From contig OX393550.1 in the NCBI GenBank assembly GCA_947650365.1, forward strand, positions 121,088,374-121,152,373: DNA of 64,000 nucleotides. The letters are read 5' to 3'. Source of the DNA: Chamaelirium japonicum (taxonomy: Eukaryota; Streptophyta; Magnoliopsida; Liliales; Melanthiaceae). Below, in pieces: positions 1 to 64,000 of this stretch (its first letter is position 1; every line of letters begins with the position of its first letter). The translations under genes and the position numbers were made by a program. Below the pieces are notes generated by a model. That model searched no databases. It was given only the letters and a program-made list of their open reading frames with translations, and was not told the DNA's origin.

Positions 1-1981
1 AGAATGGATCGTACGAATGAATTAGAATGGATCGTGGATTGTACTAATGTATCCATTCTAATTCATTCGTACGATCCACTCTAATTCCTTCGTACGATCC
101 ATTCTAATTCCTTCATACGATCCATTCTAATTCCTTTGTACGACCCATTATATTTCATTCGTATGATCCATTCTAATTCCTTTGGACGATCCATTCTTAT
201 TCATTCATACGATCCATTCTAATTCATTCGTACGATCCATTCTTATTCATTCGCACGATCCATTCTAATTCATTCGCACGAATGTATCCATTCTAATTCA
301 TTCGAATGAATTAGAATAGATTGTGCGAATGATTTATAATGGATCGTACGAATGAATTAGAATGGTTACATTCGTGCGAATGAATTAGAATGGATCGTAT
401 GAATGAATTAGAATAGATCGTATGAGTGAATTCGAATGGATCGTGCGAATGAATTAGAATGGATTGTACGAATGAATTAGAATGGATCGTATGAATGAAT
501 TAGAATGGATACATTCGTGCGAATCCATTCTATTTCATTCGTACGATCCATTCTAATTCATTCGTACGATCCATTCTTCCTCATTCGTACGATCCATTCT
601 TACTCATTCGTACGATCTATTCTAATTCATTCGCATACGAATGAATTATAATGGATCATACGAATGAATTAGAATAGATTGTTCGAATGAATTTGAATGG
701 ATCGTACGAATGAATTAGAATGGATACATTCGTGCGAATGAATTAGAATGGATACATTTGTGCGAAAGAATTAGAATAGATCGTATGAATGAATTAGAAT
801 GGATCGTATGAATGAATTAGAATGGATCGTGTGAATGAATTAGAATGGATCGTACGAATGAATTAGAATGGATCGTACGAAGGAATTAGAATGGATCGTA
901 CGAATGAATTAGAATGGATACATTCGTACAAGCCATTCTAATTCTTTCGTACGATCCATTCTAATTCATTCGTACGATTCATTCGTATGATCCATTCTAA
1001 TTCATTCGTACGAATGTATCCACTCTAATTCATTCATACGATGCTAATTCATTTGTACGATCCATTCTAATTCATTCGCACGATCCATTCTAATTCATTC
1101 ATACGATCCATTCTAATTCATTCGTACGATCTATTCTAATTCATTCGCACAATCTATTCTAATTCATTCGTACGATCCATTCTAATTCATTCGCACGATC
1201 CATTCTAATTCATTCGTATGATCCATTCTATTTCATTCGTATGATCCATTCTTACTCATTCGTACGATCCATTCTAATTCATTCGCTCGAATGTATCCAT
1301 TCTAATTCATTCGTACGATCCATTCTAATTCCTTCGTACGATCCATTCTAATTCCTTCGTACGATCCATTCTAATTCCTTTGTACGACCAATTATATTTC
1401 ATTCGTATGATCCATTCTAATTCCTTTGTACGATCCATTCTAATTCATTCCCATGAATGTATCCATTCTAATTCATACATACGATCCATTCTAATTCATT
1501 CATACGATCCAATCTAATTCATTCATACGATTCATTCTAATTCATTCGCATGAATGTATCCATTCTAATTCCTTCGTACGATCCATTCTAATTCCTTCGT
1601 ACGATCCATTCTAATTCATTCGCACAATCTATTCTGATTCATTCATACGTTACATTCTAATTCATTACGTACGTATGAATTAGAATAGATACATTCAAGG
1701 GAATGAATAAGAATGGATCGTACGAAGGAATTACAATGGATCACACGAATGAAATAGAATGGATCGTACAAAGGAATTAGAATGGATCGTACGAAGGAAT
1801 TAGAATGGATCGTACGAATGAATTAGAATGGATACATTCGTGCGAATGAATTAGAATGGATCGTATGAATGAATTAGATTGGATCATATGAATGAATTAG
1901 AATGGATCGTGTGAATGAATTAGAATGGATCGTACGAATGAATTAGAATGGATCGTATGAATGAATTAGAATGGATCATGT

Positions 1982-2029
1982 ATCCATTCTAATTCATTCG
2001 TACGATCGTACGAATGAATTAGAATGGAT
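1982..2029. repeat. Perfect 48-bp palindrome at an orientation switch
   Basis: One reverse monomer meets a forward monomer directly at a central GATC (2004-2007). The left arm reads ATCCATTCTAATTC... and the right arm is its exact reverse complement, ending ...GAATTAGAATGGAT. There is no spacer, so the strand can fold back completely. A degenerate version of the same joint is at about 18237-18276. Confidence 0.93.
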
Positions 2030-2227
2030 TGTACGAATGAATTAGAATGGATTGTACGAATGAATTAGAATAGATCGTGCGAATGAATTAGAATGGATAC
2101 ATTCGTGCGAATGAATTAGAATGGATCGTATGAATGAATTTGATTGGATCGTATGAATGAATTAGAATGGATCATACGAATGAAATATAATGGGTCGTAC
2201 AAAGGATTTAGAATGGATCGTACGAAG

Positions 2228-2444
2228 GAATTAGAATGGATCATACGAAGGAATTAGAATGGATCGTACGAAGGACTTAGAATGGATCGTATGAATGAAT
2301 TAGAATGGATACATTCGTGCGAATGAATTAGAATGGATCGTACGAATGAGTAAGAAAGGATCGTACGAATGAATTAGAATAGATCGTACAAATGAATTAG
2401 AATAGATATATTCGTGCGAATGAATTAGGATGCATTTTGCGAAT
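2228..2444 (+). repeat. 217-bp duplicated segment, copy 1
   Basis: The segment shares a run of uncommon variants with the next 216 bp: GAAGGACTTAG (2271), GAGTAAGAAAGG, AGATATATTCG and TTAGGATGCA (about 2425). The marker GACTTAG is at 2274 here and 2491 in copy 2. At its end this copy reads GCATTTTGCG where copy 2 reads GCATCGTGCG. Confidence 0.85.
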
Positions 2445-2660
2445 GAATTAGAATGGATCGTACGAAGGAATTAGAATGGATCGTACGAAGGACTTAGAAT
2501 GGATCGTATGAATGAATTAGAATGGATACATTCGTGCGAATGAATTAGAATGGATCGTACGAATGAGTAAGAAAGGATCGTACGAATGAATTAGAATAGA
2601 TCGTACAAATGAATTAGAATAGATATATTCGTGCGAATGAATTAGGATGCATCGTGCGAA
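2445..2660 (+). repeat. 216-bp duplicated segment, copy 2
   Basis: Tandem partner of the preceding segment, offset by 216-217 bp and nearly identical over about nine monomers, including the 28-bp monomer and the GGATGCA variant at 2645. It is a recent local duplication of nine monomers. Confidence 0.85.
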
Positions 2661-3612
2661 TGAATTAGAATGGATCGTACGAATGAATTAGAATGCCATT
2701 CTAATTCATTCGCACGATCCATTCTAATTCATTCATACAATCCATTCTAATTCTTTCACACGATCCATTCTAATTCATTCGTATGGATTCATTCGTGTGA
2801 ATAAATTAGAATGGATCGTGCGAATGAATTAGAATGGATCGTACGAATGGATTAGAATAGATTGTGCGAATGAATTAGAATGGATCGTACGAATGAATTA
2901 GAATGGATACATTCGTGCGAATGAATTAGAATGGATCGTATGAATGAATTAGAATGGATCGTGCGAATGACTTAGAATGGATACATTCGTGCGAATGAAT
3001 TAGAATGGATCGTATGAATGAATTAGATTAGATTGTATGAATGATTAGATTGGATCGTGCGAATGAATTAGAATGGATCGTACGAATGAATTAGAATGGA
3101 TCGTACGAATGAATTAGAATGGATTGTGTATCCATTCAAATTCTTTCGTATGAATGGATACATTCATGCAAAAGAATTAGAATGGACAGTATGAATGAAT
3201 TAGAATGGATCGTGCAAATGAATTAGAATGGATCGTGCGAATGAATTAGAATGGATCGTACGAATGAATTAGAATAGATTGTGCGAATGAATTAGAATGG
3301 ATAAATTCGTAAGTACGAATGTATCCACTCTAATTCATTCATACGATCCATTCTAATTTATTCGTACGATCCATTCTAATTCCTTCGTATGATCCATTCT
3401 AATTCATTCGTACGATCCATTCTAATTCATTCGCACAATCTATTCAAATTCATTCGTACGATCAATTCTAATTCATTTGCATGATCCATTCTAATTCATT
3501 CGCACAATCTATTCTAATTAATTCGTACGTTCTATTCTAATTCATTTGCACAAATGTATCCATTCTAATTCATTCGTACAATCCATTCTAATTCTTTCGC
3601 ACAATCTATTCT

Positions 3613-4565
3613 AATAGAATGGATCGTACAAATGAATTAGTATGGATCGTACGAATGAATTAGAATGGATCGAATGAATGAATTAGAATGGATACATTCG
3701 TGCGAATGAATTAGAATGGATCGTGCGAATGAATTAGAATGGATCGTACGAATGAATTGGAATGGATTGTACGAAGGAATCAGAATGGTTCGTACGAAGG
3801 AATTACAATGGATACATTCGTGCGAATGAATTAGAATGGATCGTACAAATGAGTAAGAATGGATCGTACGAATGAAATAGAATGGATTGTACGAATGAAT
3901 TAGAATGGATTCATTCGTGCGAATGAAATAGAATGGATCGTGCTAATGAATTAAAATTGATCGTACGAATGAATTAGAATAGATTGTGCGAATTAATTAG
4001 AATGGATCGTACGAATGAATTAGAATGGATCATACGAATGAATTAGAATGGATATATTCGTCCAAATGAATTAGACTGGATCGTATGAATGAATTAGAAT
4101 GGATCATACGAATGAATTAGAATGGATACATTCGTGTGAATGAATTAGAATGGATCGTACGAATGAATTAGAATGGATCGTATGAATGAATAAGAAAGGA
4201 TCGTGCGAAAGAATTAGAATGGATTGTATGAATGAATTAGAATGGATCGTGCGAATGAATTAGAATGGATCGTACGAATGACTTAGAATGGATTGTATGA
4301 ATGAATTAGAATGGATCGTGCGAATGAATTAGAATGGATCGTAGGAATGAATTAGAATGGATACATTCGTGCGAATGAATTAGAATGGATCGTACGAATG
4401 AATTAGAATGGATCGTACGAATGAAATAGAATGGATTATACGTATGAATTAGAAGGGATCGTGCGAATGAATTAGAATGGATCATATGAATCAATTAGAA
4501 TGGATACATTCGTGCGAATGAATTAGAATGGGTCATATGAATGAATTAGAGTAGATACATGCGTG
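3613..4565 (+). repeat. Forward satellite block, ~0.95 kb
   Basis: All monomers read forward. The block mixes 23-bp units and 28-bp units (for example near 3690, 3808, 3910, 4120, 4360 and 4500). It begins at the joint CTATTCTAATAGAATGG (about 3607) and ends at GATACATGCGTGCTCGTAC (about 4553), where reverse units start. A 62-codon open stretch on the minus strand at 4306-4494 is an accident of variant monomers; its translation is the same short motif repeated and it is not annotated as a gene. Confidence 0.93.
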
Positions 4566-4566
4566 C

Positions 4567-5992
4567 TCGTACGATCCATTCTAATTCATTCGTACAATCC
4601 ATTCTATTTCATTCGTATGATCCATTCTTACTCATTCGTACGATCCATTCTAATTCATTCGCACGAATGTATCCATTCTAATTCATTCGTACGATCCATT
4701 CTAATTCATTCGTACGATCCATTCTAATTCATTTGCACGATCCATTCTAATTCATTCGCACGAATGAATCCATTCTAATTCATTCGTGCAATCCATTCTA
4801 TTTCATTCGTACGATCCATTCTTACTCATTCGTACGATCCATTCTAATTCATTCGCGCGAATGTATCCATTCTAATTCATTCGTACGATCCATTCTAATT
4901 CATTCGTACGATCCATTCTAATTCATTCGCACGATCCATTCTAATTCATTCATACGATCCATTCTAATTCATTCTCACAATCTATTTTAATTCATTCGTA
5001 CGTTCCATTCTAATTCATTCGTACGATCCATTGTAATTCATTCATACGATCCACTTTAATTCATTTGCATGAATATATCCATTCTAATTCATTCGTACGA
5101 TCCATTCTAATTCCTTCGTACGATCCATTCTATTTCATTCGTATGATCCATTCTAATTCCTTTGTACGATCCATTCTTATTCATTTGCACAATCTATTCT
5201 AATTCATTCGTACGATCTATTCTAATTCATTCGCACGAATGTATCCATTCTAATTCATTCGTACGATCCATTCTATTTCATTCGTACGACCCATTCTAAT
5301 TCATTCGCACGAATTTATCCATTCTAATTCATTCGTACGATCCATTCTAATTCATTCGCACAATCTATTCTAATTCATTCGTACGTTCAATTCTAATTCA
5401 TTCGCACAAATGTATCCATTCTAATTCATTCGTACGATCCATTCTAATTCATTCGCACAATTTATTCTAATTCATTCATAAGATCCAATCTAATTCATTC
5501 ATACGATCCATTCTATTTAATTCGCACGAATGTATCCATTCTAATTCATTCGTCAGATCCGTTCTAATTCATTCATACGATCCATTCTAATTCATTCATA
5601 CGATCCATTCTAATTCATTCTAATTTATTTGTACGATCCATTCTAATTCATTCGTACGATCCATTCTAATTCATTCGCACGATCCATTCCAATTCATTCG
5701 CACGAATGTATCCATTCTAATTCCTTCGTACGATCCATTCTAATTCATTCGTACGATCTATTCTAATTCATTCGCACAATCTATTCTAATTCATTCGTAC
5801 GATCAATTCTAATTCATTCGTACGATCTATTCTATTTCATTCGCTCGATCCATTCTAATTCATTTATACGATCCATTCTAATTCATTCGCACGAATATAT
5901 CCATTCTAATTCCTTCGTACGATCCATTCTAATTCATATGATCCATTCTATTTCATTCGTACGATCCATTCTAATCCATTCGTACGATCCAT
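4567..5992 (-). repeat. Reverse satellite block, ~1.4 kb
   Basis: All monomers read in the reverse sense (CCATTCTAATTCATTCG...). Reverse 28-bp monomers (CGCACGAATGTATCC) recur through it. The right boundary is the joint GATCCATTGTATGAAGG near 5990, where forward units resume. Confidence 0.93.
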
Positions 5993-5994
5993 TG

Positions 5995-7750
5995 TATGAA
6001 GGAATTAGAATGGATCGTACGAATGAATTAGAATGGATACATTCGTGCGAATGAATTAGAATGGATACATTCGTGCGATAGAATTAGAATAGATTGTACG
6101 AATGAATTAGAATGGATCGTACGAATGAATTAGAATGGATACATTTGTGTGAATGAATTATAATGGATCGTACGAATGAGTAAGAATGGATCGTACGAAT
6201 GAAATAGAATGGATTGTACGAATGAATTAGAATGGATCGTACGAATGAATTAGATTGGATCATGTGAAAGAATTAGAATGGATTATATGAATGAATTAGA
6301 ATTGATTGTATGAATGAATTAGAATGGATCGTGCGAATGAATTAGAATGGATCGTACGAATGAATTAGAATGGATCCTATGAATGAATTAGAATTGGTCT
6401 TGCGAATGAATTAGAATTGATCGTGCGAATGAATTAGAATGGATCGTACGAATGAATTAGAATGGATCGTAATAATGGATCGTACCTATGAATTTGTACG
6501 TATGAATGAATTAGAATGGATCGTATGAAAGAATTAGAATGGATTGTATGAATGAATTAGAATGGATCGTATGAATGAATTAGAATGGATCGTATGAATG
6601 AATTAGAATGGATTGTACGAATGAATTAGAACGGATCGTACGAATGAATTATAATGGATACATTCGTGTGAATGAATTAGAATGGATCATACAGATCGTA
6701 TGAATGAATTAGAATGGATCGTACTTATGAATTAGAATGGATCGTATGAATCAATTAGAATGGATACACGATCCATTCTAATTCATTCGTACGATCCATT
6801 GTAATTCATTCGCACAATCTATTCTAATTCATTCGTACGATCCATTCTAATTCATTCATACAATCCATTCTAATTCTTTCACACGATCCATTCAAATTCA
6901 TTCGTACGATCCATTCTAATTCACAAGTACGATCCATTCTAATTAATTTGTTCATTCGCACGAATGTATCCATTCTAATTCATTCGTACGATCCATTCTA
7001 ATTCATTCGCACAATCCATTCTAATTCATTCATACGATCCATTCTAATTCATTCGTACGATCCATTCTAATTCAATCGTACAATCCATTCTTATTCATTC
7101 GTACGATCCATTCTAATTCATTCATACGATCCATTCTAATTCATTCGCACGAATGTATCCATTCTAATTCACTCATACGATCAATTCTAATTCATTCATA
7201 CGATCCATTCTAATTCATTCATACAATCCATTCTATTTCATTCGTACGATCCATTCTTACTCATTCGTACGATCCATTCTAATTCATTCGCACGAATATA
7301 TCCATTCTATTTCATTCGTACGATCCATTCTAATTCATTCATACGAACCATTCTAATTCATTCATACAATCCATTCTAATTATTTCACACGATCCATTCT
7401 AATTCATTCGTACGATCCATTCTAATTCATTTGCACAATCTATTCGAATTCATTCGTACGATCCATTGTAATTCATTCGCACGATCCATTCTAATTCATT
7501 CGCACGAATGAATCCATACGAATGAATTAGAATGGATCGTGTGAAAGAATTAGAATGGATTGTATGAAAGAATTAGAATGGATCGTATGAATGAATTAGA
7601 ATGGATCGTGCGAATGAATTAGAATGGATCGTACGAATGAATTAGAATAGATACATTCGTCCAAATGAATTAGAATGGATCGTGCGAATGAATTAGAATG
7701 GATCGTACGAATGAATTAGAATGGATTATACTAATGAAATAGAATGGATT
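5995..7750. repeat. Satellite: forward, reverse, forward blocks
   Basis: Forward 5995-6766, reverse 6767-7515, forward 7516-7750. The first switch (6759-6779) is the asymmetric joint GGATACACGATCC, seen again at about 16222 and 16812 and in reverse complement at other sites. The segment 6175-6335 holds a recurrent multi-monomer cassette (GAGTAAG unit, GAAATAG unit, GTGTGAAAG-type unit). The second switch reads GAATGAATCCATACGAATG. Confidence 0.9.
6469..6510 (+). repeat. Rare monomer variant paralogous to LTR target site (unoccupied)
   Basis: The sequence reads GGATCGTAATAATGG, then TATGAATTTGTACGTATG, the same variant that flanks the LTR at 46354-47505, here without an insertion. One base differs at the target (GTACC instead of GTACG, 6482-6486). 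Confidence 0.88.
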
Positions 7751-9908
7751 GTACGATCCATTCTAATTCATTCGCACAATCTATTCTAATTCATTCGTAC
7801 GATCAATTCTAATTCATTAGCACGATCCATTCTAATTCATTCGTACGATCTATTCTATTTCATTCGTACGATACATTCTTACTCAATCGTATGATCCATT
7901 CTAATTCATTCGCACGAATGTATCCATTCTAATTCATTCGTACGATCCATTCTAATTCCTTCGTACGATCCATACGAATAAATTAGAATGAATTAGAATG
8001 GATTGTATGAATGAATTAGAATGGATCGTGAATTAGAATGGATCGCGCGAATGAATTAGAATGGATCGTGCGAATGAATTAGAATGGATTGTGCGAATGA
8101 ATTCGAATGGATCGTATGAATGAATTAGATTGGATCGTATGAATGAATTAGAATGGATCTTGTGAATGAATTAGAATGGATCGTATGAGTGAATTAGAAT
8201 GGATCGTATGAATGAATTAGAATGGATCATACGAATGAAATATAATTGGTCGTACAAAGGAATTAGAATGGATCGTACGAAGGAATTAGAATGGATCGTA
8301 CGAATGAATTAGAATGGATACATTCGTACAATCCATTCTAATTCATTCGTACGATCCATTCTAATTCATTCGTACGATTCATTCGTATGATCCATTCTAA
8401 TTCATTCGTATGAATCCACTCTAATTCATTCATACGATACATTCTAATTCATTCGTACGATCCATTCTAATTCCTTCGTACGATCCAATTCTAATTCATT
8501 CATACGATCCATTTTAATTCATTCGTACGATCCATTCTAATTCATTCGCACGATCGATCCTAATTCATTCATACGATCCATTCTAATTCATTCATACGAT
8601 CTATTCTTATTCTTTCGCACGAATGTATCCATTCTAATTCATTCGCACGAATGTATCCATTCTAATTCATTTGTACGATCCATTCTAATTCATTCGCACA
8701 ATCTATTCTAATTCATTGGATCGTATGAAGGAATTAGAATGGATCGTACGAATGAATTAGAATAGATACATTCGTGCGAATGAATTAGAATGGATCGTAC
8801 GAATGAATTAGAATGGATTGTACGAATGTATCCATTCTAATTCATTCGTACGATCCATTCTAATTCCTTCATACGATCCATTCTAATTCCTTCGTACGAT
8901 CCATTCTAATTCCTTTGTACGACCCATTATATTTCATTCGTATGATCCATTCTAATTCCTTTGTACGATCTATTCTAATTCATTCATATGATCCATTCTA
9001 ATTCATTCATACGATCCATTCTTACTCATTCGTATGATCATAAATTAGAATGGATCGTACGAATGAGTAAGAATGGATCGTACGAATGAAATGGAATGGA
9101 TTGTACGAATGAATTAGAATGGATTCATTCATGTGAATGAATTAGAATGGATCTTGCGAATGAATTAGAATGGATCGTACGAATGAATTAGAATGGATCG
9201 TATGAATGAATCAGAATGGATACATTCGTGTGAATGAATTAGAATAGATTGTGCGAATGAATTAGAATGGATCGTACGAATGAATTAGAATGGATACATT
9301 CGTGCGAATGAATTAGAATGGATCTTACGAATGAGTAAGAATGGATCGTACGAATGAAATAGAATGGATTGTACGAATGAATTAGAATGGATCGTACGAA
9401 TGAATTAGAATGGATCGTGTGAAAGAATTAGAATGGATTGTATGAATGAATTAGAATGGATCGTATGAATGAATTAGAATGGATCGTGCGAATGAATTAG
9501 AATGGATCGTATGAATGAATTAAAATAGATCGTACGAATGAAATAGAATGGATCATACGAATGAATTAGAATGGATCGTGCTAATGAATTAGAATTGATC
9601 GTATGAATGAATTAGAATAGATTGCGCGAATGAATTAGAATGGATCGTACGAATGAAATAGAATGGATACATTCGTGCGAATGAATTAGACGTACGATCC
9701 ATTCTAATTCATTCGCACGAATGTATCTATTCTAATTCATTCGTACGATCCATTCTAATTCCTTCGCACGATCCATTCTAATTCATTCATATGATCCAAT
9801 CTAATTCATTCATACGATCCATTCTAATTCATTCGCACGAATGTATCCATTCTAATTCATTCGTACGATCCATTCAAATTCATTCGCACAAACTATTCAA
9901 ATTCATTC
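7751..9908. repeat. 2.16-kb higher-order unit, copy A
   Basis: First of three tandem copies. Its order is reverse 7751-7972, forward 7973-8325, reverse 8326-8717, forward 8718-8825, reverse 8826-9035, forward 9040-9690, reverse 9691-9908. Diagnostic variants shared by all copies are ACATTCTTACTCAATCG (about 7873), GATCGTGAATTAG (about 8025), ATAATTGGTCGTAC (about 8240), CATTGGATCGTATGAAGG (about 8716), GTATGATCATAAATTAG (about 9032) and GAATTAGACGTACG (about 9684). The period to copy B, measured on the TCAATCG marker, is 2158 bp. The unit is itself a chain of seven alternating blocks. Confidence 0.92.
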
Positions 9909-12070
9909 GTACGATCCATTCTAATTCATTCGCACAATCTATTCTAATTCATTCGTACGATCAATTCTAATTCATTAGCACGATCCATTCTAATTCATTC
10001 GTATGATCTATTCTATTTCATTCGTACGATACATTCTTACTCAATCGTATGATCCATTCTAATTCATTCGCACGAATGTATCCATTCTAATTCATTCGTA
10101 CGATCCATTCTAATTCCTTCGTACGATCCATACGAATAAATTAGAATGAATTAGAATGGATTGTATGAATGAATTAGAATGGATCGTGAATTAGAATGGA
10201 TCGCGCGAATGAATTAGAATGGATCGTGCGAATGAATTAGAATGGATTGTGCGAATGAATTCGAATGGATCGTATGAATGAATTAGATTGGATCGTATGA
10301 ATGAATTAGAATGGATCGTGTGAATGAATTAGAATGGATCGTACGAATAAATTAGAATGGATCGTATGAATGAATTAGAATGGATCATACGAATGAAATA
10401 TAATTGGTCGTACAAAGGAATTAGAATGGATCGTACGAAGGAATTGGAATGGATCGTACGAATGAATTAGAATGGATACATTCGTACAATCCATTCTTAT
10501 TCATTCGTACGATCCATTCTAATTCATTCGTACGATTCATTTGTATGATCCATTCTAATTCATTCGTACGAATGTATCCACTCTAATTCATTCATACGAT
10601 ACATTCTAATTCATTCGTACGATCCATTCTAATTCCTTCGTACGATCCAATTCTAATTCATTCATACGATCCACTCTAATTCATTCGTACGATCCATTCT
10701 AATTCATTCGCATGATTGATCCTAATTCATTCATACGATTCATTCTAATTCATTCATACGATCTATTCTAATTCTTTCGCACGAATGTATCCATTCTAAT
10801 TCATTCGCACGAATGTATCCATTCTAATTCATTTGTACGATCCATTCTAATTCATTCGCACAATCTATTCTAATTCATTGGATCGTATGAAGGAATTAGA
10901 ATGGATCGTACGAATGAATTAGAATGGATACATTCGTGCGAATGAATTAGAATGGATCGTACGAATGAATTAGAATGGATTGTACGAATGTATCCATTCT
11001 AATTCATTCGTACGATCCATTCTAATTCCTTCATACGAACCATTCTAATTCCTTCGTACGATCCATTCTAATTCCTTTGTACGACCCATTATATTTCATT
11101 CGTATGATCCATTCTAATTCCTTTGTATGATCTATTCTAATTCATTCATATGATCCATTCTAATTCATTCGTACGATCCATTCTTACTCATTCGTATGAT
11201 CATAAATTAGAATGGATCGTACGAATGAGTTAGAATGGATCGTACGAATGAAATGGAATGGATTGTACGAATGAATTAGAATGGATTCATTCATGTGAAT
11301 GAATTAGAATGGATCTTGCGAATGAATTAGAATGGATCGTACGAATGAATTAGAATGGATCGTATGAATGAATCAGAATGGATACATTCGTGCGAATGAA
11401 TTAGAATAGATTGTGCGAATGAATTAGAATGGATCGTACGAATGAATTAGAATGGATACATTCGTGCGAATGAATTAGAATGGATCATACGAATGAGTAA
11501 GAATGGATCGTACGAATGAAATAGAATGGATTGTATGAATGAATTAGAATGGATCGTACGAATGAATTAGAATGGATCGTGTGAAAGAATTAGAATGGAT
11601 TGTATGAATGAATTAGAATGGATCGTATGAATGAATTAGAATGGATCGTGCGAATGAATTAGAATGGATCGTATGAATGAATTAAAATGGATCGTACGAA
11701 TGAAATAGAATGGATCATACGAATGAATTAGAATGGATCATGCTAATGAATTAGAATTGATCGTATGAATGAATTAGAATAGATTGCGCGAATGAATTAG
11801 AATGGATCGTACGAATGAAATAGAATGGATACATTCGTGCGAATGAATTAGACGTACGATCCATTCTAATTAATTCGCACGAATGTATCTATTCTAATTC
11901 ATTCGTACGATCCATTCTAATTCCTTGGCACGATCCATTCTAATTCATTCATACGATCCAATCTAATTCATTCATACGATCCATTCTAATTCATTCGCAC
12001 GAATGTATCTATTCTAATTCATTCGTACGATCCATTCAAATTCATTCGCACAAACTATTCAAATTCATTC
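9909..12070. repeat. 2.16-kb higher-order unit, copy B
   Basis: Second tandem copy, with the same seven-block order and the same diagnostic joints as copy A (TCAATCG marker at 10041; GTATGATCATAAATTAG at about 11191; GAATTAGACGTACG at about 11846). The period to copy C is 2162 bp. Differences from A are scattered substitutions, many of them CG to TG or CA, plus small indels. Confidence 0.93.
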
Positions 12071-14233: not shown

Positions 14234-14416
14234 TACGATCCATTCTAATTCATTCGTACGATCCATTCTAATTCATTCGTACGATCCATTCTAATTCATT
14301 CGCACGATCCATTCTAATTCATTCGCACAATCTATTCTAATTCATTTGTACGATCAATTCTAATTCATTAGCACGATCCATTCTAATTCATTCGTACGAT
14401 CTATTCTATTTCATTC
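14234..14416 (-). repeat. Fragment of a fourth 2.16-kb unit
   Basis: After copy C the sequence matches the start of the unit (CGCACAATCTATTC, GTACGATCAATTC, CATTAGCACGATCC, CTATTCTATTTCATTCG). About four extra monomers are inserted near 14250-14320. It diverges before the TCAATCG marker, so the tandem series ends here. Confidence 0.78.
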
Positions 14417-46459: not shown

Positions 46460-46547
46460 AGTCTTAGGTGCACAACGGCGAGCTGTAGTAGACAAAAGTG
46501 GTAGGGAAAAGGGTTTCGAATCTGTACTCTAGAGCCTGGGGGTGGGC

Positions 46548-47400: not shown

Positions 47401-47460
47401 GCCTAGGCCCCTTCAGCCCAATGTGGATCTCGCTCCCTGTCAAGATGATTTGGTGAGCAT

Positions 47461-47471
47461 GGGGGGGGGGG
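47461..47471 (+). repeat. G11 homopolymer
   Basis: Eleven G in a row, 34 bp from the LTR end. The length is liable to sequencing or assembly error. Confidence 0.9.
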
Positions 47472-47505
47472 CGAACTCCTGGGCGAGTTTCAGCTACCCC
47501 CAACA

Positions 47506-53540: not shown

Positions 53541-54762
53541 TGGATCGTATGAATGAATTAGAATTGATACATACGAATGAATTAGAATGGATCGTATGAA
53601 TGAATTAGAATAGATCGTACGAATGAATTAGAATGGATCGTTTGAATGAATTAGATTGGATCGTATGAATGAATTAGAATAGATCGTATGAATGAATTAG
53701 AATGGATCGTATGAATGAATTAGAATGGATCGTACGAATGAAATAGAATGGATAATACGAATGAATTAGAATGGATCGTGCGAATGAATTAGAATAGATC
53801 GTATGAATGAATTAAAATGGATATATTCGTGCAAATGAATTAGAATGGATCATACGAATGTGTAAGAATGGATCGTACTAATGAATTAGAATGGATCGTG
53901 CGAATGAATTATAATGGATCGTACGAATGAGTAAGAATGGATCGTGCGAATGAATTAGAATGGATCGTACGAATGAATTAGACTGGATACATTCGTGCGA
54001 ATGAATTAGAATGGATCATACAAATGAGTAAGAATGGATCGTAAGAATGAAATAGAATGGATTGTACGAATGAATTAGAATGGATCGTACGAATGAATTA
54101 GAACGGATACATTCATGCGAATGAATTAGATTGGATCGTACGAATGAGTAAGAATGGATCGTGCGAATGAAATAGAATGGATCGTGCGAATGAATTAGAA
54201 TGGATCGTACGAATGTATTAGAATGGATCGTATGAATAAATTAGAATGGATACATACGAATGAATTAGAATGGATCATATGTATGAATTAGAATGGATCG
54301 TATCAATGAATTAGAATGGATCGTACGAATGAATTAGAATAGATCGCGCGAATGAATTAGAATGGATCGTACGAATGAATTAGAATGGATTGTGCGTATC
54401 AATTAGAATGGATACATTCGTTCGAATGAATTAGAATGGATCGTACGAATGAATTAGAATGGATCGTATGAATGAATTAGAATGGATCGTACGAAGGAAT
54501 TAGAATGGATCGTACGAATGAATTAGAATAGATTGTGCAAATGAATTAGAATGGATCGTATGAATAAATTAGAATGGATCGTACGAATGAATTAGAATGG
54601 AATAGATTGTACGAATGAATTAGAATGGATCGTGCGAATGAATTAGAATGGATTGTACGAATGAATTAGAATGGATAGTACGAATGAATTAGAATGGATC
54701 GTGTGAAAGAATTAGAATGGATTGTATGAATGAATTAGAATGGATCGTATGAATGAATTAGA
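53541..54762 (+). repeat. Forward satellite block, ~1.2 kb
   Basis: Uniform forward monomers. It begins at CTAATTCAATGGATCGTATG, a joint that recurs at about 58705 and 59262 with the same flanks, and ends at GAATTAGAGATCCATTC. Confidence 0.92.
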
Positions 54763-55933
54763 GATCCATTCTAATTCATTAGAATTAGATTGGATCGTAC
54801 GATCCATTCTAATCCATTCTAATTCATTCGCACGAATGTATCCATTCTAATTCATTCGCACGATCCATTCAAATTCATTCATATAATCTAGAATGGATCA
54901 TGCGAATGAATTAGAATGGATCGTATGATCGTACGAATGAATTAGAATAGATCTATTCTAATTCATTCGTACGATCTATTCTAATTCATTCGTAAGATCT
55001 ATTCTAGTTCCTTCGTACGATCTATTCTAATTCATTCGTACGATCCATTCTAATTCATTCGTATGATCTATTCTAATTCATTCGTACGATCCATTCTAAT
55101 TCATTCGCACTAATGTATCCATTCTAATTCATTCATACAATCTATTCTAATTCATTCGTACGATCCATTCTAATTCATTCGTACAATCCATTCTATTTCA
55201 TTCGTACGATCCATTCTTACTCATTCGTATGATCCATTCTAATTCATTCGCACGAATGTATCCATTCTAATTCATTCGTACGATCCATTCTAATTCATTC
55301 GTACGATAAATTCTAATTCATTCGTACAATCCATTCTAATTCATTCATACGATCCATTCTAATTCATTCATATGATCTATTCTAATTCTTTCGCACGAAT
55401 GTATCCATTCTAATTCATTCGTATGATCCATTCTAATTCCTTCGTACGATCCATTCTAATTCCTTCGTACGATCTATTCTAATTCATTCCTACGATTCAT
55501 TATAATTCATTCGTACGATCTATTCTAATTCATTCGAACGATCCATTCTAATTCATTCGCATGAATGTATCCATTCTAATTCATTCATACAATCTATTCT
55601 AATTTATTCGTACGATCCATTCTAATTCATTCGTACAATCGATTCTATTTCATTCGTACGATCCATTCTTACTCATTCCTATGATCCATTCTAATTCATT
55701 CGCACGAGGGTATCCATTCTAATTCATTCGTACGATCCATTCTAATTCTTTCGTATGATCCATTCTTACTCATTCATACGATCCATTCTAATTCATTCGC
55801 ACGAATATATCCATTCTAATTCATTCGAACGATCCATTCTAATTCATTCGTACGATCCATTCTAATTCATTCGTACGATCCATTCTAATTCATAAGTACG
55901 ATCCATTCTATTTCATTCGTACGATCTATTCTA
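54763..55933. repeat. Mostly reverse block with a scrambled start
   Basis: Between 54763 and 54953 the orientation changes several times within single monomers (GAGATCC; CATTAGAATTAGATTGG; ATCTAGAATGG; AATAGATCTATTC). From 54954 to 55933 it is uniformly reverse. The short flips near 54760-54955 are the densest rearrangement in the right part. Confidence 0.86.
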
Positions 55934-57335
55934 ATGAAATAAAATGGATTGTACGAATGAATTAGAATGGATCGTACGAATGAATTAGAATGGATACATT
56001 CGTGCGAATGAATTAGTATGGATCATACGAATGAGTAAGAATGGATCGTACGAATGAAATAGAATGGATTGTAAGAATGAATTAGAATGGATCGTAGTAT
56101 TGAATTAGAATAGATTGTATGAATGAATTAGAATGGATATATTCATGCGAATAAATTAGAATGGATCGTACGAATGAATTAGAATAGATCGTACGAATGA
56201 ATTAGAATGGATCGTACGAATGAATTATAATAGATCGTACAAAGGAATTAGAATGGATCGCACGAAGGAATTAGAATGGATCGTACGAATGAATTAGAAT
56301 GGATACATTCGTGCGAAAGAATTAGAATAGATCGTATGAATGAATTAGAATGGATCGTATGAATGAATTAGAATGGATTGTACGAATGAATTAGAATTGA
56401 TCGTACGAATGAATTAGAATGGATCGTACGAATGAATTAGAATGGATACATTCGTGCGAATGAATAAAAATGGATCATACTAATGAGTAAGAATGGATCG
56501 TACGAATGAAATAGAATGGATTGTACAAATGAATTAGAATGGATCGTATGAATGAATTAGAATAGATTGTATGAATGAATTAGAATGGATACATTCGTGC
56601 GAATGAATTAGAATGGATCGTACGAATGAATTAGAATAGATCGTATGAATGAATTAGAATGAATCGTACGAATGAATTAGAATAGATCGTACGAAGGAAT
56701 TAGAATGTATCGTACGAAGGAATTAGAATGGATCGTACAGATGAATTAGAATGGATACATTCGTGCGAAAGAATTAGAATAGATCGTATGAATGAATTAG
56801 AATGGATCGTACGAATGAATTAGAATAGATTGTGCGAATGAATTAGAAGGGATCGTACGAATGAATTAGAATGGATACATTCGTGCGAATAAATTAGAAT
56901 GGATCGTATGAATGAATTAGAATGGATCGTATGAATGAATTAGAATGTATCGTACAAATAAATTAGAATGGATACATTCGTGCGAATGAATTCGAATAGA
57001 TCATACGATTGAGTAAGAATGGATCGTACGAATGAAATAGAATGGATCGTACGAAGGAATTAGAATGGATCATACGAATGAATTAGAATGGATCGTATGA
57101 AAGAATTAGAATGGATTGTATGAATGAATTAGAATGGATCGTATGAATGAATTAGAATGGATTGTGCGAATGAATTAGAATGGATCGTACGAATGAACTA
57201 GAATGGATACATTCGTGCGAATGAATTAGAATGGATCATACGAACAAGTAAGAATGGATCGTACGAATGAAATAGAATGGATTGTACGAATGAATTAGAA
57301 TGGATCGCACGAATGAAATAGAATGGATCATAATC
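55934..57335 (+). repeat. Forward satellite block, ~1.4 kb
   Basis: Uniform forward monomers with regularly recurring 28-bp units (for example near 55988, 56288, 56440, 56585, 56750, 56870 and 57200). Two internal stretches (about 55960-56300 and 56400-56740) share the same order of variants, suggesting a duplication of about 0.44 kb. Confidence 0.88.
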
Positions 57336-57500
57336 TAATTCATTCATATGATCCATTCTAATGCGAATGAATTAGAATGGATCGTATGAATGAATTAGAT
57401 TACGATCCATTCTATTTCATTCGTACGATCCATTCTAATTCATTCGTACAATCCATTCTATTTCATTCGTACGACGCACGATCCATTCTAATTCATTCGT
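57325..57500. repeat. Compound inversion segment, copy 1
   Basis: A forward block is followed by about 28 bp reverse, about 40 bp forward, then a long reverse block (CATAATCTAATTC; CTAATGCGAATG; GATTACGATCC; GTACGACGCACG). The same order is found at 62089-62260, offset 4764 bp, so it is a copied compound joint. Confidence 0.87.
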
Positions 57501-60500
57501 ATGATCCATTCTAATTCATACGCACGAATGAATCCATTCTAATTTATTCGTACGATCCATTCTAATTCATTCGTACAATCCATTCTAATTCATTCGTACG
57601 ATCCATTCTAATTCATTCATACAATCCATTCTAATTCATTCGTACAATCCATTCTAATACTTTCACACGATCCATTCTATTTCATTCGTACGATCCATTC
57701 TAATTCATTCGTACAATCCATTCTATTTCATTCGTACAACGCACGATCCATTCTAATTCATTCGTATGATCCATTCTAATTCATTCGCACGAATATATCC
57801 ATTCTAATTCATTCGTAAGATCCATTCTAATTCATTCGTACAATCCATTCTAATCCATTCGTACGATCCATTCTAATTCATTCATACGATCCATTCTAAT
57901 TCATTCATACAATCCATTCTAATTCTTTCACACGATCCATTCTAATTCATTCGTACGATCCATTCTAATTGATACATAGAATCCATTCTATTTCATTCGT
58001 AAGATCCATTCTAATTCATTAGCACGAATGTATCTATTCTAATTCATTCGTATGATCCATTCTAATTCATTCATACGATCCATTCTAATTCATACATACA
58101 ATCCATTCTAATTCTTTCACATGATCCATTCTAATTCATTCGTACGATCCATTCTAATTCATTCGTACGATCCATTCTAATTTATTCGTACGATCCATTC
58201 TAATTCATTTGTACGATCCATTCTAATTCATTCGTACAATCCATTCTATTTCATTCGTACGATCCATTCTTACTCATTCGTATGATCCATTCTAATTCAT
58301 TCGCTCGAATGTATCCATTCTAATTCATTCGTACGATCCATTCTAATTCATTCGTATGATCCATTCTAATTCATTCATACGATCCATTCTAATTCATTCA
58401 TAATATCCATTCTAATTCATTCACACGAATGTATCCATTCTAATTCATTCGTACGATCCATTCTAATTCATTAGCACGATCCATTCTAATTCATTCGTAC
58501 TATCCATTCTTACTCATTCGTAAGATCCATTCTAATTCATTCGCACGAATGTATCCATTCTAATTCATTCGTACGATCCATTCTAATTCATTCGCACGAT
58601 CAATTCTAATTCATTCGTACGATCCATTCTAATTCATTCATACAATCCATTCTTACTCATTCGTATGATCCATTCTAATTCATTTGCACGAATATATCCA
58701 TTCTAATTCAATGGATCGTATGAATGAATTAGAATGGATACATACGAATGAATTAGAATGAATCGTATAAATGAATTACAATAGATCGTACGAAGGTATT
58801 AGAATGGATCGTACGGATGAATTAGAATTGATCGTACGAATGAATTAGAATAGATTGTGCGAATGAATTAGAATGGTGCGAATGAATTAGAATGGATCGT
58901 GCGAATGAATTAGAATGGATCGTACGAATGAATTAGAATGGATCGCGTACAATCCATTCTATTTCATTCGTACGATCCATTCTTACTCATAGCACGATCC
59001 ATTCTAATTCATTCGTACAATCCATTCTAATTCATTCGCACGATCCATTCGAATTCACTCATACAATCTATTCTAATTCATTCGTATGATCCATTCTAAT
59101 TCATTTGTATCCATTCTATTTCATTCGCACGATCCATTCGAATTCATTCGCATGATCCATTCTAATTCATTTATACGATCCATTCTAATTCATTCATACA
59201 ATCCATTCTTACTCATTCGTATGATCCATTCTAATTCTTTTGCACGAATATATCCATTCTAATTCAATGGATCGTATGAATGAATTAGAATGGATACATA
59301 CGAATGAATTAGAATGGATCATATGAATGAATTAGATTGGATCGTATGAATGAATTAGAATGGATCGTGCATCATACGAATGAATTGGAATGGATCGTAT
59401 TAATGAATTAGAATGGATCGTGCGAATGAATTAGAATGGATCGTACGAATGAATTAGAATGGATCGTATGAATGAATTAGAATAGATTGTGCGAATGAAT
59501 TAGAATGGATTGTACGAATGAATTAGAATGGATACGAATGAATTAGAATGGATCATTCGTGCGAATGAATTAGAATGGATCATACGAATGAGTAAGAATG
59601 GATCGTAAGCATGAATTAGAATGGATCGTATGAATGAATTAGAATTGATCGTGCGAATGAATTAGAATGGATTGTGCGAATAAATTAGAATGGATCGTAC
59701 GAATGAATTAGAATGGATACATTCCTGTGAATGAATTAGAATGGATCATACGAATGAGTAAGAATGGAACGTACGAATGTATTCGTGCAAATGAATTAGA
59801 ATGGATCGTATGAATGAGTAAGAATGGATCGTACGAATGAAATAGAATGGATTGTACGAATGAATTAGAATGGATCGTACGAATGAATTAGAATGAATGT
59901 ATCCATTCTAATTTATTTGTACGATCCATTCTAATTCATTCGTACGATACATTCTAATTCATTCATACGATCCATTCTAATTCATTCATACAATCCATTC
60001 TAATTCTTTCACACGATCCATTCTAATTCATTCGTACGATCCATTCTAATTCATTCATACTATCTATTCTAATTCATTCGTACAATCCATTCTAATTCAT
60101 TCGCACGAATGTATCCATTTTAATTCATTCGTACGATCCATTCTAATTCATTAGCATGAATGTGTCCATTCTAATTCCTTCGTACGATCCATTCTAATTC
60201 CTTTGTACGAATCATTCTTACTCATTCGTACGATCCATTCTAATTCATTCGCACGAATGTATCCATTCTAATTCCCTCGTACGATCCATTCTAATTCATT
60301 CGTACGATCCATTCTATTTCATTCGCACGATCCATTCTAACTCATTCGCTCGATCCATTCTAATTCATTCGCACGATCCATTCTAATTCATTCGCACGAT
60401 CCATTCGAATTCATTCATTCAATCCATTCTAATTCTTTCACACGATCCATTCTAATTCATTCGTACGATCCTTTCAAATTCATTCGTACAATCCATTCTA

Positions 60501-60702
60501 TTTCATTCGTACGATCCATTCTTACTCATTCGTACGATCTATTCTAATTCATTCGTACGATCCATTATAATTCATTCGTACGATCTATTCTAATTCATTC
60601 GTACGATCCATTCTAATTCATTCGCACGAATGTATCCATTCTATTTCATTCGTACGATCCATTCTTACTCATTCATATGATCCATTTTAATTCATTCGTG
60701 CG
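57336..60702. repeat. Satellite mosaic, mainly reverse
   Basis: Approximate map: reverse 57336-57363, forward 57364-57403, reverse 57404-58708, forward 58709-58945, reverse 58946-59268, forward 59269-59895, reverse 59896-60702. The segment with CATTTGCACGAATATATCC and then CAATGGATCGTATG occurs at about 58679-58735 and 59237-59290, and again near 53511-53560. Confidence 0.86.
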
Positions 60703-62095
60703 AAGGAATTAGAATGGATCGTACGAAGGAATTAGAATGGATACATTCGTGCGAATGAATTAGAATGGATACATTCGTGCGAATGAATTAGAATTGATCG
60801 TACGAATGAATTAGAGTGGATCGTGTGAAAGAATTAGAATGGATTGTATGAATGAATTAGAATGGATCGTATGAATGAATTAGAATGGATCGTGCGAATG
60901 AATTCGAATGGATCGTGCGAATGAAATAGAATGGATACAAATGAATTCGAATGGATCATACGAATGAATTAGAATGGATCGTATGAGTGAATTCGAATGG
61001 ATCGTGCGAATGAATTAGAATGGATCGTACGAATGAATTAGAATGGATACATTCTTGCGAATGAATTAGAATGGATCGTGCGAATGAATTAGAATGGATC
61101 GTACGAATGAATAAGAATAGATCGTACGAATGAATTAGAATGGATACGAATGGATTAGAATGGATACATTCGTGCGAATGAATTAGAATGGATCATACGA
61201 ATGAGTAAGAAAGGATCGTACGAATGAATTAGAATGGATCGTATGAATGAATTAGAATTGATCGTGCGAATGAATTAGAATGGATTGTGCGAATGAATTA
61301 GAATGAATCGTACGAATGAATTAGAATGGATACATTCGTGCGAATAAATTAGAATGGATCATACGAATGAGTAAGAATGGATCATTCAAATGTATTCGTG
61401 CAATTTAATTAGAATGGATCGTATGTATGAATGAATTAAAATGGATCGCACGAATGAGTAAGAATGGATCGTACGAATGAAATAGAATGGATTGTACGAA
61501 TGAATTAGAATGGATACATTCGTGCGAAAGAATTAGAATAGGTCGTAAGAATAAATTAGAATGGATCGTATGAATGAATTAGAATGGATCATACGAATGA
61601 GTAAGAATGGATCGTATGAATGAATTAGAATGGATCGTACGAATGAATTAGAATGAATTAGAATGGATCGTACGAATGAATTAGAATGGATATATTCGTG
61701 CAAATGAATTAGAATAGATCGTACGAATGAATTAGAATAGATCGTACGAATGAGTAAGAATCGATCGTACGAATGAAATAGAATGGATTGTACGAATAAA
61801 TTAGAATGGATCGTACGAATGAATTAGAATGGATCGTGTGAAAGAATTAGAATGGATTGTATGAATGAAGTAGAATGGATCGTATGAATGAATTAGAATG
61901 GATCGTACGAATGAATTAGAATGGATTGTACGAACGAATTAGAATGGATCGTACGAATGAATTAAAATGGATACATTCGTGCAAATGAATTAGAATGGAT
62001 CATACGAATGAGTAAGAATGGATTGTACGAATGAAATAGAATGGATTGTACGAATGAATTAGAATAGATTGTACGGATGAAATAGAATGGATCGT
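60703..62095 (+). repeat. Forward satellite block, ~1.4 kb
   Basis: Uniform forward monomers. A shortened monomer GGATACAAATGAATTCG (60933) recurs at about 63937 with the same flanks, offset about 3004 bp. The recurrent cassette is at 61749-61910. Confidence 0.9.
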
Positions 62096-62260
62096 AATCT
62101 AATTCATCGATACGATCCATTCTAATGCAAATGAATTAGAATGGATCGTATGAATAAATTAGATCACGATCCATTCTATTTCATTCGTACGATCCATTCT
62201 AATTCATTCGTACAATCCATTCTATTTCATTCGTACGCCGCACGATCAATTCTAATTCAT
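62089..62260. repeat. Compound inversion segment, copy 2
   Basis: The same series of micro-blocks as 57325-57500 (CGTAATCTAATTC; CTAATGCAAATG; GATCACGATCC; GTACGCCGCACG). Small differences include CATCGATACG for CATTCATATG. Confidence 0.87.
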
Positions 62261-64000
62261 TCGTATGATCCATTCTAAATCATTCGCACGAATGTATCCA
62301 TTCTAATTCATTCGTACGATCCATTCTAATTCATTCGTACAATACATTCTAATTCATTCGTACGATCCATTCTAATTCATTCATACGATCCATTCTAATT
62401 CATTCATACCATCCATTCTAATTCTTTCACACGATCCATTCTAATTCATTCGTACGATCCATTCTAATTCATTCGTACAATCCATTCTATTCCATTCGTA
62501 CGATCCATTCTTACTCATTCGTACGATCCATTCTAATTCATTCGTACGATCTATTCTAATTCATTTGCACGAATGTATCTATTCTAATTCGTAAGAATGA
62601 TTCGTACGATCCATTCTAATTCATTCGCACAATCCATTCTTATTCATTCTTACTCATTAGCACGATCCATTTTAATTCATTCGTACAATCCATTCTAATT
62701 TATTCGCACGATCCATTCGAATTCACTCATACGATCCATTCTAATTCCTTCGTATGATCCATTCTAATTCAATTGTATCCATTCTAATTCATTCATACGA
62801 TCCATTCTAATTCATTCATACAATCCATTCTTACTCATTCGTATGATCCATTCTAATTCATTTGCACGAATATATCCATTCTAATTCATTCATACTAGCC
62901 ATTCTAATTCATTCATACGATCCATTCTAATTCATTCGCACAATCTATTCTAATTCATTCGTACGATCCATTCTAATTCATTAGCACGATCCATTCTAAT
63001 TCATTCATACAATCCATTCTAATTCTTTCACACGATCCATTCTAATTCATTCGTACAATCTATTATAATTCTTTCGAATGGATCATCGTATGAATGAGTA
63101 AGAATTAGAATGGATTGTATGAATGAATTAGAATGAATTAGAGTGGATCGTACGAATGAAATAGATCGTATGAATGAATTAGAATGGATCGTGCAAATGA
63201 ATTAGAATGGATCGTACGAATGAATTAGAATGGATCGTACGAATGAATTAGAATGGATACATTCGTGCGAATGAATTAGATTGGATCGTATGAATGAGTA
63301 AGAATGGATCGTACGAATGAAATAGAATGGATTGTACGAATGAATTAGAATGGATCGTACGACTGAATTAGAATGGATCGTGTGAAAGAATTAGAATGGA
63401 TTGTATGAATGAATTAGAATGGATCGTATCAATGAATTAGAATGGATACATTTGTGTGAATGAATTAGAATGGATCGTGCGAATGAAATAGAATGGATCG
63501 TACGAATGAGTAGGAATGGATCGTACGAATGAAATAGAATGGATCGTACGAATGAATTAGAATGGATACATTCGTGCGAATGAATTACAATGGATCGTAC
63601 GAATGAATTAGAATGGATCGTACGAATGAATTAGAATGGATCGTACTAATGAATTAGAATGGATCGTACGAATAAAATAGAATGGATCGTACGATTGAAT
63701 TAGAATGGATCGTACGAATGAAATAGAATGAATTGTACGAATGAATTAGAATGGATCGTACGAATGAATTAGAATGGATCGTATGAATGAATTAGAATGG
63801 ATCGTGTGAATGAATTAGAATGGATCGTACGAATGAATTAGAATGGATTGCATGAATGAATTAGAATGGACCATATGAATGAATTAGAATGGATCGTGCG
63901 AATGAATTCGAATGGATCGTGCGAATGAAATAGAATGGATACAAATGAATTAGAATGGATCATACGAATGAATTAGAATGGATCGTATGAGTGAATTCGA
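62096..64000. repeat. Satellite mosaic to the window end
   Basis: Approximate map: reverse 62096-62127, forward 62128-62164, reverse 62165-63080, forward 63081-64000. There are short irregular spots at about 62590 (GTAAGAATGATTCG) and 63072-63170 (truncated monomers). The cassette is at 63294-63430. The array runs off the end of the window. Confidence 0.87.

What the first reader, a model, noticed from the sequence alone, without database searches (positions are those of the whole stretch)
1..64000. Satellite array that reverses orientation about a hundred times in 64 kb
The 23/28-bp monomers form alternating forward and reverse blocks, from a single monomer to about 3.1 kb. Classical satellites are overwhelmingly head-to-tail over such distances. 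Transcripts across adjoining blocks could fold into long duplexes, which would favour small-RNA silencing; that last point is inference. Repeated template switching or fold-back replication at palindromic monomers would explain the pattern.
Basis: partly seen in the sequence, partly recalled or inferred. Interest (0 to 1): 0.8.

Follow-up and report, generated by a model that had tools for sequence, protein, structure and literature searches.

The report
Orientation-flipping centromere repeat of Chionographis
The stretch is part of a centromere of a plant whose chromosomes carry many centromeres (Chionographis, a lilioid), built from short repeats that change direction about every 500 bases; the flipping is real and already published for this plant, and the sequence at the flip points suggests they arise through error-prone copying or joining and are then duplicated and spread.

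Summary
Confirmed, and already known. All but about 1.2 kb of the window is one satellite of 23- and 28-bp monomers that switches strand 126 times (87-120 under harsher penalties, 0 in controls). matK and scaffold sizes identify the published Chionographis japonica assembly. The repeat is Chio1/Chio2, the CENH3-bound satellite of its holocentromere units; its mixture of forward and reverse arrays was published in 2023 and called "frequently alternating" in 2025. Assembly error is unlikely: closely matching block patterns recur at about 96% identity on scaffolds 10 and 12 and two other contigs. The 126 switches fall into about 78 junction families, because multi-kb units carrying several switches were duplicated. 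Joins show excess microhomology and a roughly threefold excess at the TCGTACGA dyad. Small reversed blocks lack the signature of in-place inversions, and flanks are on average not fold-back copies, though local inverted duplications exist. Best reading: microhomology-assisted, copy-type joining, then direct amplification and spread between units. Small-RNA silencing was not tested; published low CHH methylation and low transcription do not favour it. The join analysis adds to the published description.

The parts
1..46338 (.). Chio1/Chio2 (23/28-bp) satellite array, alternating forward and reverse blocks
   Evidence: profile parse
47523..64000 (.). the same satellite array, continuing; it extends beyond both window ends
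46354..47505 (+). solo-LTR-like insert (TGTTTGGGGG...CCCCCAACA) flanked by a 5-bp direct repeat GTACG (46349-46353 and 47506-47510); non-satellite and richer in G+C than the array
   Evidence: sequence; composition; dispersed copies, most sharing the left edge; same edges in one copy on another contig
47062..47396 (+). 22-bp tandem repeat inside the LTR-like insert
   Evidence: Tandem Repeats Finder
7751..14325 (+). three copies of a unit of about 2.16 kb, about 98% alike, with the same order of six strand switches (the third copy is cut short)
   Evidence: (12 of 12 switches in the aligned 4.4 kb agree)
21227..31130 (+). direct duplication of a segment of about 5 kb with its switches, 96-97% alike in pieces
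40176..41060 (.). inverted duplication without spacer (885-bp palindrome, 94%); forward 40211-40617, reverse 40618-41027
   Evidence: folds as one long hairpin
54955..56752 (.). inverted duplication, arms 54955-55755 and 55952-56752 (95%), spacer 197 bp
37761..39946 (.). inverted duplication, arms 37761-38264 and 39443-39946 (95%), spacer about 1.18 kb
52069..53773 (.). inverted duplication, arms 52069-52505 and 53336-53773 (438 bp, 94.7%), spacer about 0.83 kb
1..2264 (+). segment with eight switches found at 96.5% identity on scaffold C10 (L036); its first part also on C12, C103 and C143

Best explanation
The window is part of the distal holocentromere unit of chromosome scaffold 2 of Chionographis japonica, made of the centromeric satellite Chio1 (23 bp) and Chio2 (28 bp). 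The strand mosaic is a record of microhomology-assisted, copy-type joining, such as template switching during break-induced replication or templated insertion during break repair. The joins fall preferentially, though not mainly, at the monomer's TCGTACGA dyad. Segments of tens of bp to a few kb were pasted in either orientation; multi-kb units already carrying several switches were then multiplied by direct duplication and copied between centromere units on different scaffolds. Shown: identity of the satellite and genome, switch counts, families, shared patterns across loci, microhomology and dyad excess. Inferred: the enzymology, the copy nature of each join, and that this takes place in CENH3 chromatin.
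For: Identity: matK from this genome is 100% identical over 338 aa to Chionographis. The twelve large scaffolds sum to 1,090.67 Mb and the eighth is 81.1 Mb; the paper gives 1090.73 Mb and N50 81.11 Mb. Orientation mixture published. Joins, one value per family: microhomology mean 1.57 bp against 0.63 for simulated blunt joins of the same material; 4 bp or more in 26 of 183 families against 18 of 723 joins (Fisher p 6.5e-9). Dyad axis: 25 of 183 families against 38 of 930 simulated joins (odds ratio 3.7, p 4.4e-6). Among alignment pairs within 164 kb at 94% or more, direct ones prevail over inverted ones: 64 to 11 at 500 bp or more, 19 to 1 at 1 kb or more (pairs, not events). Inverted copies are often local: 5 of 25 within 1.5 kb against a random mean of 0.63. 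Ends of duplicated segments lie within 10 bp of a switch in 30 of 404 cases (7.4%) against 3.2% of random positions. Multi-switch segments are shared with C10, C12, C103 and C143.
Against: Most joins (157 of 183 families) have less than 4 bp of microhomology, so blunt or near-blunt joining is common. In the window alone only 8 of 78 families lie on the dyad axis, and another axis (22: 16 against 6.9 expected) has no palindrome to explain it. Counting exact palindromes at the joins gave mixed results. At 300 bp or more the excess of direct over inverted pairs is weaker, 152 to 85 within 164 kb, and for pairs involving the other loci it is 238 to 184 (55 to 24 at 500 bp or more). The related Chamaelirium luteum shares TTCGTACGA but has consistently oriented arrays (PMC12722358), so the dyad is not sufficient. 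Large overlapping inversions and end joining of loose fragments are not excluded.
Confidence: 0.55

Rival explanations
1. Random-orientation integration of linear fragments or extrachromosomal circles of Chio into breaks, joined by microhomology-mediated end joining. Nothing is template-switched; pre-made pieces are pasted in.
For: Microhomology excess fits end joining as well as template switching; block lengths are compatible with an exponential distribution (KS p 0.155); eccDNA integration is among the authors' own proposals (PMC10264360 section 14).
Against: Whole-monomer circles inserted in reverse should give a phase step near 2 between the two ends of a block (my derivation). A step of 1 to 3 is found in 4 of 53 distinct blocks under 150 bp, 6.9 expected by chance. 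Linear fragments are not excluded. Inverted copies are enriched next to their source, which a free pool of fragments would not give.
Confidence: 0.22
2. Many in-place inversions of array segments, with breaks anywhere in the monomer.
For: Forward and reverse totals are balanced in the window (31,304 and 31,512 bp); blocks of 150 bp or more show a slight excess of the inversion phase step, 42 of 258 (33.7 expected), or 18 of 88 (11.5 expected) in the strict subset.
Against: Small reversed blocks lack the inversion signature (4 of 53 under 150 bp, 6.9 expected; strict subset 2 of 20, 2.6 expected), whereas 103 of 120 simulated in-place inversions show it. Duplicated and inverted-duplicated copies are plentiful, which inversions alone cannot make. 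Large overlapping inversions remain possible, since their ends no longer bound one block.
Confidence: 0.13
3. Fold-back (hairpin-primed) replication at the palindromic monomer is the main source; each switch is the axis of an inverted duplication.
For: Dyad-axis excess; local inverted duplications in the window with spacers 0, 197, 831 and 1,179 bp; at 200-bp arms 5 of 210 junctions exceed the null 99th percentile (2.1 expected) and 2 the 99.9th; the 28-bp monomer contains CATTCG-TG-CGAATG, which looks like a tiny fold-back variant of the 23-bp monomer (sequence, inference).
Against: Mean arm-to-arm similarity at switches equals that of mismatched arms: 65.0 against 65.2 at 100 bp, with 0 of 271 above the null 99th percentile, and 132.3 against 132.3 at 200 bp; one per family at 300 bp, 197.8 against 198.0 in 85 families. 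Old fold-backs could have decayed beyond recognition.
Confidence: 0.07
4. Assembly error: the switches are artefacts of assembly or scaffolding.
For: Scaffold 2 ends inside the array, and scaffolds 8, 9 and 12 begin in it, so the assembly breaks there; no raw reads could be inspected here.
Against: The assembly is from HiFi reads (PMC10264360), whose usual length far exceeds the mean block of about 0.6 kb (read length recalled, not looked up); closely matching multi-switch patterns occur at five loci on different contigs; the authors report the same mixture.
Confidence: 0.03

Closest known systems
Chio1/Chio2 centromeric satellite of Chionographis japonica (Kuo et al. 2023, PMC10264360; Kuo et al. 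2025, PMC12722358)
   Same: 23- and 28-bp monomers, 8-bp dyad, megabase array, mixture of forward and reverse arrays, same assembly by scaffold sizes
   Different: Nothing in the object itself; the switch count, junction families, microhomology, dyad excess and cross-scaffold switch patterns are additions to what I saw. Of the 2023 paper I saw the outline with abstract, sections 8, 14 and 23 and search passages; of the 2025 paper search passages only. Figures and supplements were not seen.
Chama satellite of Chamaelirium luteum (60 bp)
   Same: sister genus, shares TTCGTACGA, CENH3-bound (PMC12722358, passages)
   Different: arrays consistently oriented, with higher-order repeats over several hundred kb
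Mouse major and minor satellite arrays with direction switches (PMC10880262, passages)
   Same: centromeric and pericentric satellites with occasional strand switches, read by the authors as possible inversions
   Different: switches in only about 1-2% of arrays there, against about 2 per kb in this window
CUS-TR24 heterochromatin of Cuscuta europaea (PMC8091179, passages)
   Same: short-monomer satellite in a holocentric plant, some neighbouring arrays in opposite orientation (10-15%)
   Different: neighbouring arrays are mostly in the same orientation (40-45%) and are broken up by SSRs and LINEs
Microhomology-mediated break-induced replication and templated insertions (PMC2621351, PMC11724301; search listing with the beginnings of abstracts only)
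   Same: complex direct and inverted copying, microhomology
   Different: described there for human copy-number variants and yeast breaks, not for a satellite array

Membership tests
Chio1/Chio2 centromeric satellite | 23-bp and 28-bp monomers, the 23-mer being the 28-mer less 5 bp with 1 substitution, 23-mer dominant | tested here: met
   5,949 23-mers and 899 28-mers in 164 kb; the two consensus words differ as the paper says
Chio1/Chio2 centromeric satellite | 8-bp dyad; TTCGTACGA in the monomer | tested here: met
   TCGTACGA in the monomer consensus (TTCGTACGA on the other strand); longest self-complementary run of the 23-mer is 8, at that axis; motif named
Chio1/Chio2 centromeric satellite | mixture of forward and reverse arrays | tested here: met
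   126 switches in the window, 258 in 164 kb; published
Chio1/Chio2 centromeric satellite | lies in Chionographis japonica | tested here: met
   matK 100% to Chionographis, next genus listed 89%. The species rests on the twelve scaffold sizes. The set held has 3,253 records and 1,518.7 Mb, the paper's primary assembly 3,786 contigs and 1,526.1 Mb before scaffolding
Chio1/Chio2 centromeric satellite | megabase-size unit | tested here: met
   17 of 18 fetched 10-kb stretches of C2 outside the window, all 17 from 120.69 to 122.16 Mb, are 38-100% satellite; the one at 120.09 Mb has none. C2 ends in satellite. The gaps between samples were not read
Chio1/Chio2 centromeric satellite | bound by CENH3 | not testable with these tools
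   published for Chio arrays; no ChIP data here
Chio1/Chio2 centromeric satellite | letter-for-letter match to the published monomers | not testable with these tools
   the monomers are in a figure that is not held; a full-text search for six monomer words found 0 papers
In-place inversion array | ends of a small reversed block are reciprocal in monomer phase | tested here: not met
   4 of 53 blocks under 150 bp, 6.9 by chance; control 103 of 120
Fold-back duplication at each switch | arms on the two sides are copies of each other | tested here: not met
   mean arm similarity equals null; a few local exceptions

The most novel reading that the evidence does not exclude
Orientation switches in holocentromere units are scars of ongoing microhomology-mediated copy-and-paste repair, seeded in part at the TCGTACGA dyad, and serve as heritable barcodes that show multi-kb centromere segments moving between units on different chromosomes. 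This would be the mechanism by which the holocentromere spread.
Probability: 0.4. Interest if true: 0.6.

Novelty: already known. Interest (0 to 1): 0.35.

Why it matters
How a holocentromere made of a few megabase satellite units spread along the chromosomes is open. The authors propose ectopic recombination, gene conversion or eccDNA integration. Patterns of strand switches are distinctive enough to tell common descent from chance, so they give a direct way to trace copies between units. The join analysis here is a sequence-level test of the authors' idea that the shared dyad provokes breaks; it supports the dyad as a hotspot but not as the main site.

Tried and rejected
Assembly artefact: rejected on closely matching patterns on other contigs. 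Fold-back as main route: rejected on arm similarity. Small in-place inversions: rejected on phase bookkeeping with a positive control. Conservation of switches inside local alignments (233 of 235) was not used as evidence of stability, because a local alignment stops where orientation differs. The exact-palindrome count at joins gave weak and mixed p-values (lowest 0.007 for F-to-R at 14 bp or more and 0.008 for R-to-F at 10 bp or more, of ten tests; the plain 8-mer TCGTACGA was not above null) and is inconclusive; the axis test is the better-defined form, and I name both. An early reading of the phase sums took the R-to-F dyad class at the wrong sum; it was corrected. In one search the harsher penalties gave 116, 54, 0 and 0 switches because the parser slipped through the background state; one search repeated them with both costs raised. 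Family number depends on the cut: 121 families at 62, 183 at 68. Rfam: 0 matches in the window. Pfam: 0 families for 3 of the 5 short frames found around the LTR insert. Literature search for six monomer words: 0 papers. Structure prediction and fold search were not used; there is no protein to fold.
Full report
What was checked. I parsed the window with forward and reverse copies of a 23-bp and a 28-bp monomer and a background state. The result is 126 direct strand switches, 31,304 bp forward, 31,512 bp reverse and one non-satellite stretch at 46339-47522. The count depends mildly on the penalty: 128 at -8 and 126 at -10, then 120, 112, 106, 99 and 87 at -14, -20, -30, -45 and -60 with the background cost raised in step. 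With the background cost left low, the harsher penalties gave 116, 54, 0 and 0, because the parser crossed between strands through the background. At -6 the count is 194, probably overcalled. Controls gave no switches: all blocks turned to one strand, and a simulated head-to-tail array, each came back as one block, and shuffled sequence came back as background.

Where it is. The window is C2:121,088,374-121,152,373 of a genome of 1,518.7 Mb in 3,253 records. C2 is 122.50 Mb long, so the window lies 1.35 Mb from its end. The matK gene of the genome is 100% identical over 338 residues to Chionographis and 89% to the next genus listed. The twelve large scaffolds (lengths) add up to 1,090.67 Mb, and the eighth is 81.1 Mb; the Chionographis japonica paper gives 1090.73 Mb and N50 81.11 Mb for its twelve scaffolds (PMC10264360, section 8). 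[quoted passage not shown] The 2025 follow-up speaks of 'frequently alternating orientation' (PMC12722358, passages). The finding is therefore a known property of a known centromere satellite, in what is by all signs the assembly in which it was published.

Scale. In the 164 kb made of the window and its 50-kb flanks there are 258 switches in 161,834 bp of satellite (1.59 per kb); block lengths average 620 bp, median 364, sd 696, range 15 to 5,427, compatible with an exponential (KS p 0.155). Seven other 10-kb samples of C2 with satellite hold 52 switches in 61,356 bp, about 0.85 per kb; an eighth, at 120.09 Mb, has no satellite and was left out. Switch density thus varies, and the window is on the dense side.

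Not independent events. I clustered 394 switches from 15 sources by 80-bp flank similarity; they form 183 families, and the window's 126 form 78, 22 of them with two or more members in the window. Single linkage at a score cut of 68, chosen in the valley of the score histogram, makes this a rough number; a cut of 62 gave 121 and 57. Within the window a unit of about 2.16 kb with six switches occurs three times at about 98%, and all 12 switches in the aligned 4.4 kb agree. A segment of about 5 kb is duplicated at 96-97% in pieces.

Copies elsewhere. The first 600 bases match C12, C103, C10 and C143 at 96% (40 of 3,625 first-look candidates were scored), and there the block lengths agree closely: reverse 264, forward 220, reverse 113, forward 285, reverse 746 in the window, against 264, 220, 109, 285, 777 on C12, 264, 220, 113, 308, 746 on C103 and 264, 220, 111, 287, 754 on C10; C143 shows the same order on the other strand (267, 216, 111, 315, 740). 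Over 2,287 bp the window start and C10 share 8 of 8 switches at 96.5%. The 2.16-kb unit has a 1.4-kb match on C12 at 95%, one on C5 at 88%, and parts on C143 at 93% (40 of 8,879 candidates scored, so a lower bound). Such patterns are very unlikely to arise repeatedly by assembly error, and they show copying between loci. Placement of satellite contigs by Hi-C may itself be imperfect, so 'different chromosomes' is as good as the scaffolding.

The joins. One value per family: mean microhomology is 1.57 bp against 0.63 for simulated blunt joins of the same material parsed in the same way; 26 of 183 families have 4 bp or more against 18 of 723 simulated joins (Fisher p 6.5e-9); families seen once (127) and families seen twice or more (56) both lie above the null (means 1.69 and 1.29) (first seen). 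On the axis of the TCGTACGA dyad lie 25 of 183 families (13.7%) against 38 of 930 simulated joins (4.1%; odds ratio 3.7, p 4.4e-6); enrichment per axis correlates with the length of the self-complementary run (Spearman 0.52, p 0.012). Against this: only 8 of 78 families with a window member lie on that axis, axis 22 is also high (16 against 6.9) without a palindrome to explain it, and counting exact palindromes at the joins gave mixed results.

What the joins are not. In an in-place inversion the two ends of the reversed block are reciprocal in monomer phase. Of 120 simulated inversions 103 show it; of 53 distinct real blocks under 150 bp 4 do, 6.9 being expected by chance (strict subset 2 of 20, 2.6 expected). 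For longer blocks there is a slight excess (42 of 258, 33.7 expected; strict 18 of 88, 11.5 expected), so perhaps 4 to 10% may be inversions (my estimate), and large overlapping inversions cannot be excluded in this way. Fold-back replication predicts that the two sides of a switch are copies; mean arm similarity equals that of mismatched arms (65.0 and 65.2 at 100 bp, 271 junctions, none above the null 99th percentile; 132.3 and 132.3 at 200 bp, 210 junctions, 5 above the 99th and 2 above the 99.9th). Local inverted duplications are nevertheless visible in the window, three of 500 bp or more with spacers of 0, 197 and 1,179 bp, and one of 438 bp with a spacer of 831 bp. Among alignment pairs at 94% or more within 164 kb, direct ones prevail: 152 to 85 at 300 bp, 64 to 11 at 500 bp, 19 to 1 at 1 kb or more; for pairs that involve the other loci the ratios are 238 to 184, 55 to 24 and 16 to 8. 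These are pairs of alignments, not events. At 400 bp or more, inverted and direct pairs within 164 kb are both clustered near their partner (5 of 25 and 15 of 84 within 1.5 kb, random means 0.63 and 2.38). Ends of duplicated segments fall at switches more often than random positions do (30 of 404 against 3.2%).

Mechanism. These features fit copy-type, microhomology-assisted joining in either orientation, followed by direct amplification and exchange between units. End joining of loose fragments fits nearly as well, except that inverted copies lie near their source. [quoted passage not shown] The sister genus with the same motif but uniform arrays shows that the motif alone is not enough.

Small RNAs. 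A transcript over 40211-41027 would fold into one hairpin of about 400 bp (predicted -625.7 kcal/mol against a mean of -192.8 for 20 shuffles), so the raw possibility exists. The paper reports lower CHH methylation at Chio, similar to genes, and a negative correlation of CENH3 chromatin with transcripts (passages), which is not what strong RNA-directed silencing would leave (established knowledge of RNA-directed DNA methylation). No small-RNA data were available.

Verdict. Confirmed, real, already known; the added value is the analysis of the joins and of the shared switch patterns. I met no published junction analysis of Chio, but looked little: 19 papers hold 'Chionographis', 'satellite' and 'holocentr', and only two of them were opened, for sections or passages.

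Noticed in passing
46349-47510: Solo-LTR-like insert of 1,152 bp (TG...CA ends, direct repeat GTACG on both sides) with an internal 22-bp tandem repeat; the family is dispersed, and LTR pairs about 5 to 15 kb apart exist elsewhere (40 of 5,194 candidates scored).
   Followed up: partly
L013 1460-1501 (C218): Another copy of this LTR begins directly next to Chio-like satellite sequence, so the family may have inserted into centromere arrays more than once.
   Followed up: no
L020 2491-3472: A non-satellite stretch of 982 bp in the array upstream of the window, not identified.
   Followed up: no
L037, L045, L046, L049: Scaffold C2 ends, and C8, C9 and C12 begin, inside Chio satellite without telomere repeats in the 1-2 kb read, so these scaffold ends are probably assembly breaks; C3 begins with CCCTAAA telomere repeats.
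   Followed up: no
28-bp monomer, whole window: The 28-mer carries CATTCG-TG-CGAATG where the 23-mer has CGTACGAATG; it looks like a tiny fold-back variant of the 23-mer, the same kind of event at base scale (inference).
   Followed up: no
joins on axis 22 (all sources): A second excess of joins (16 families, 6.9 expected) at an axis of the monomer with no long palindrome.
   Followed up: no
G000, many small contigs: 121 matK matches, nearly all with the same score and on small unplaced contigs: many plastid fragments seem to remain in the assembly.
   Followed up: no
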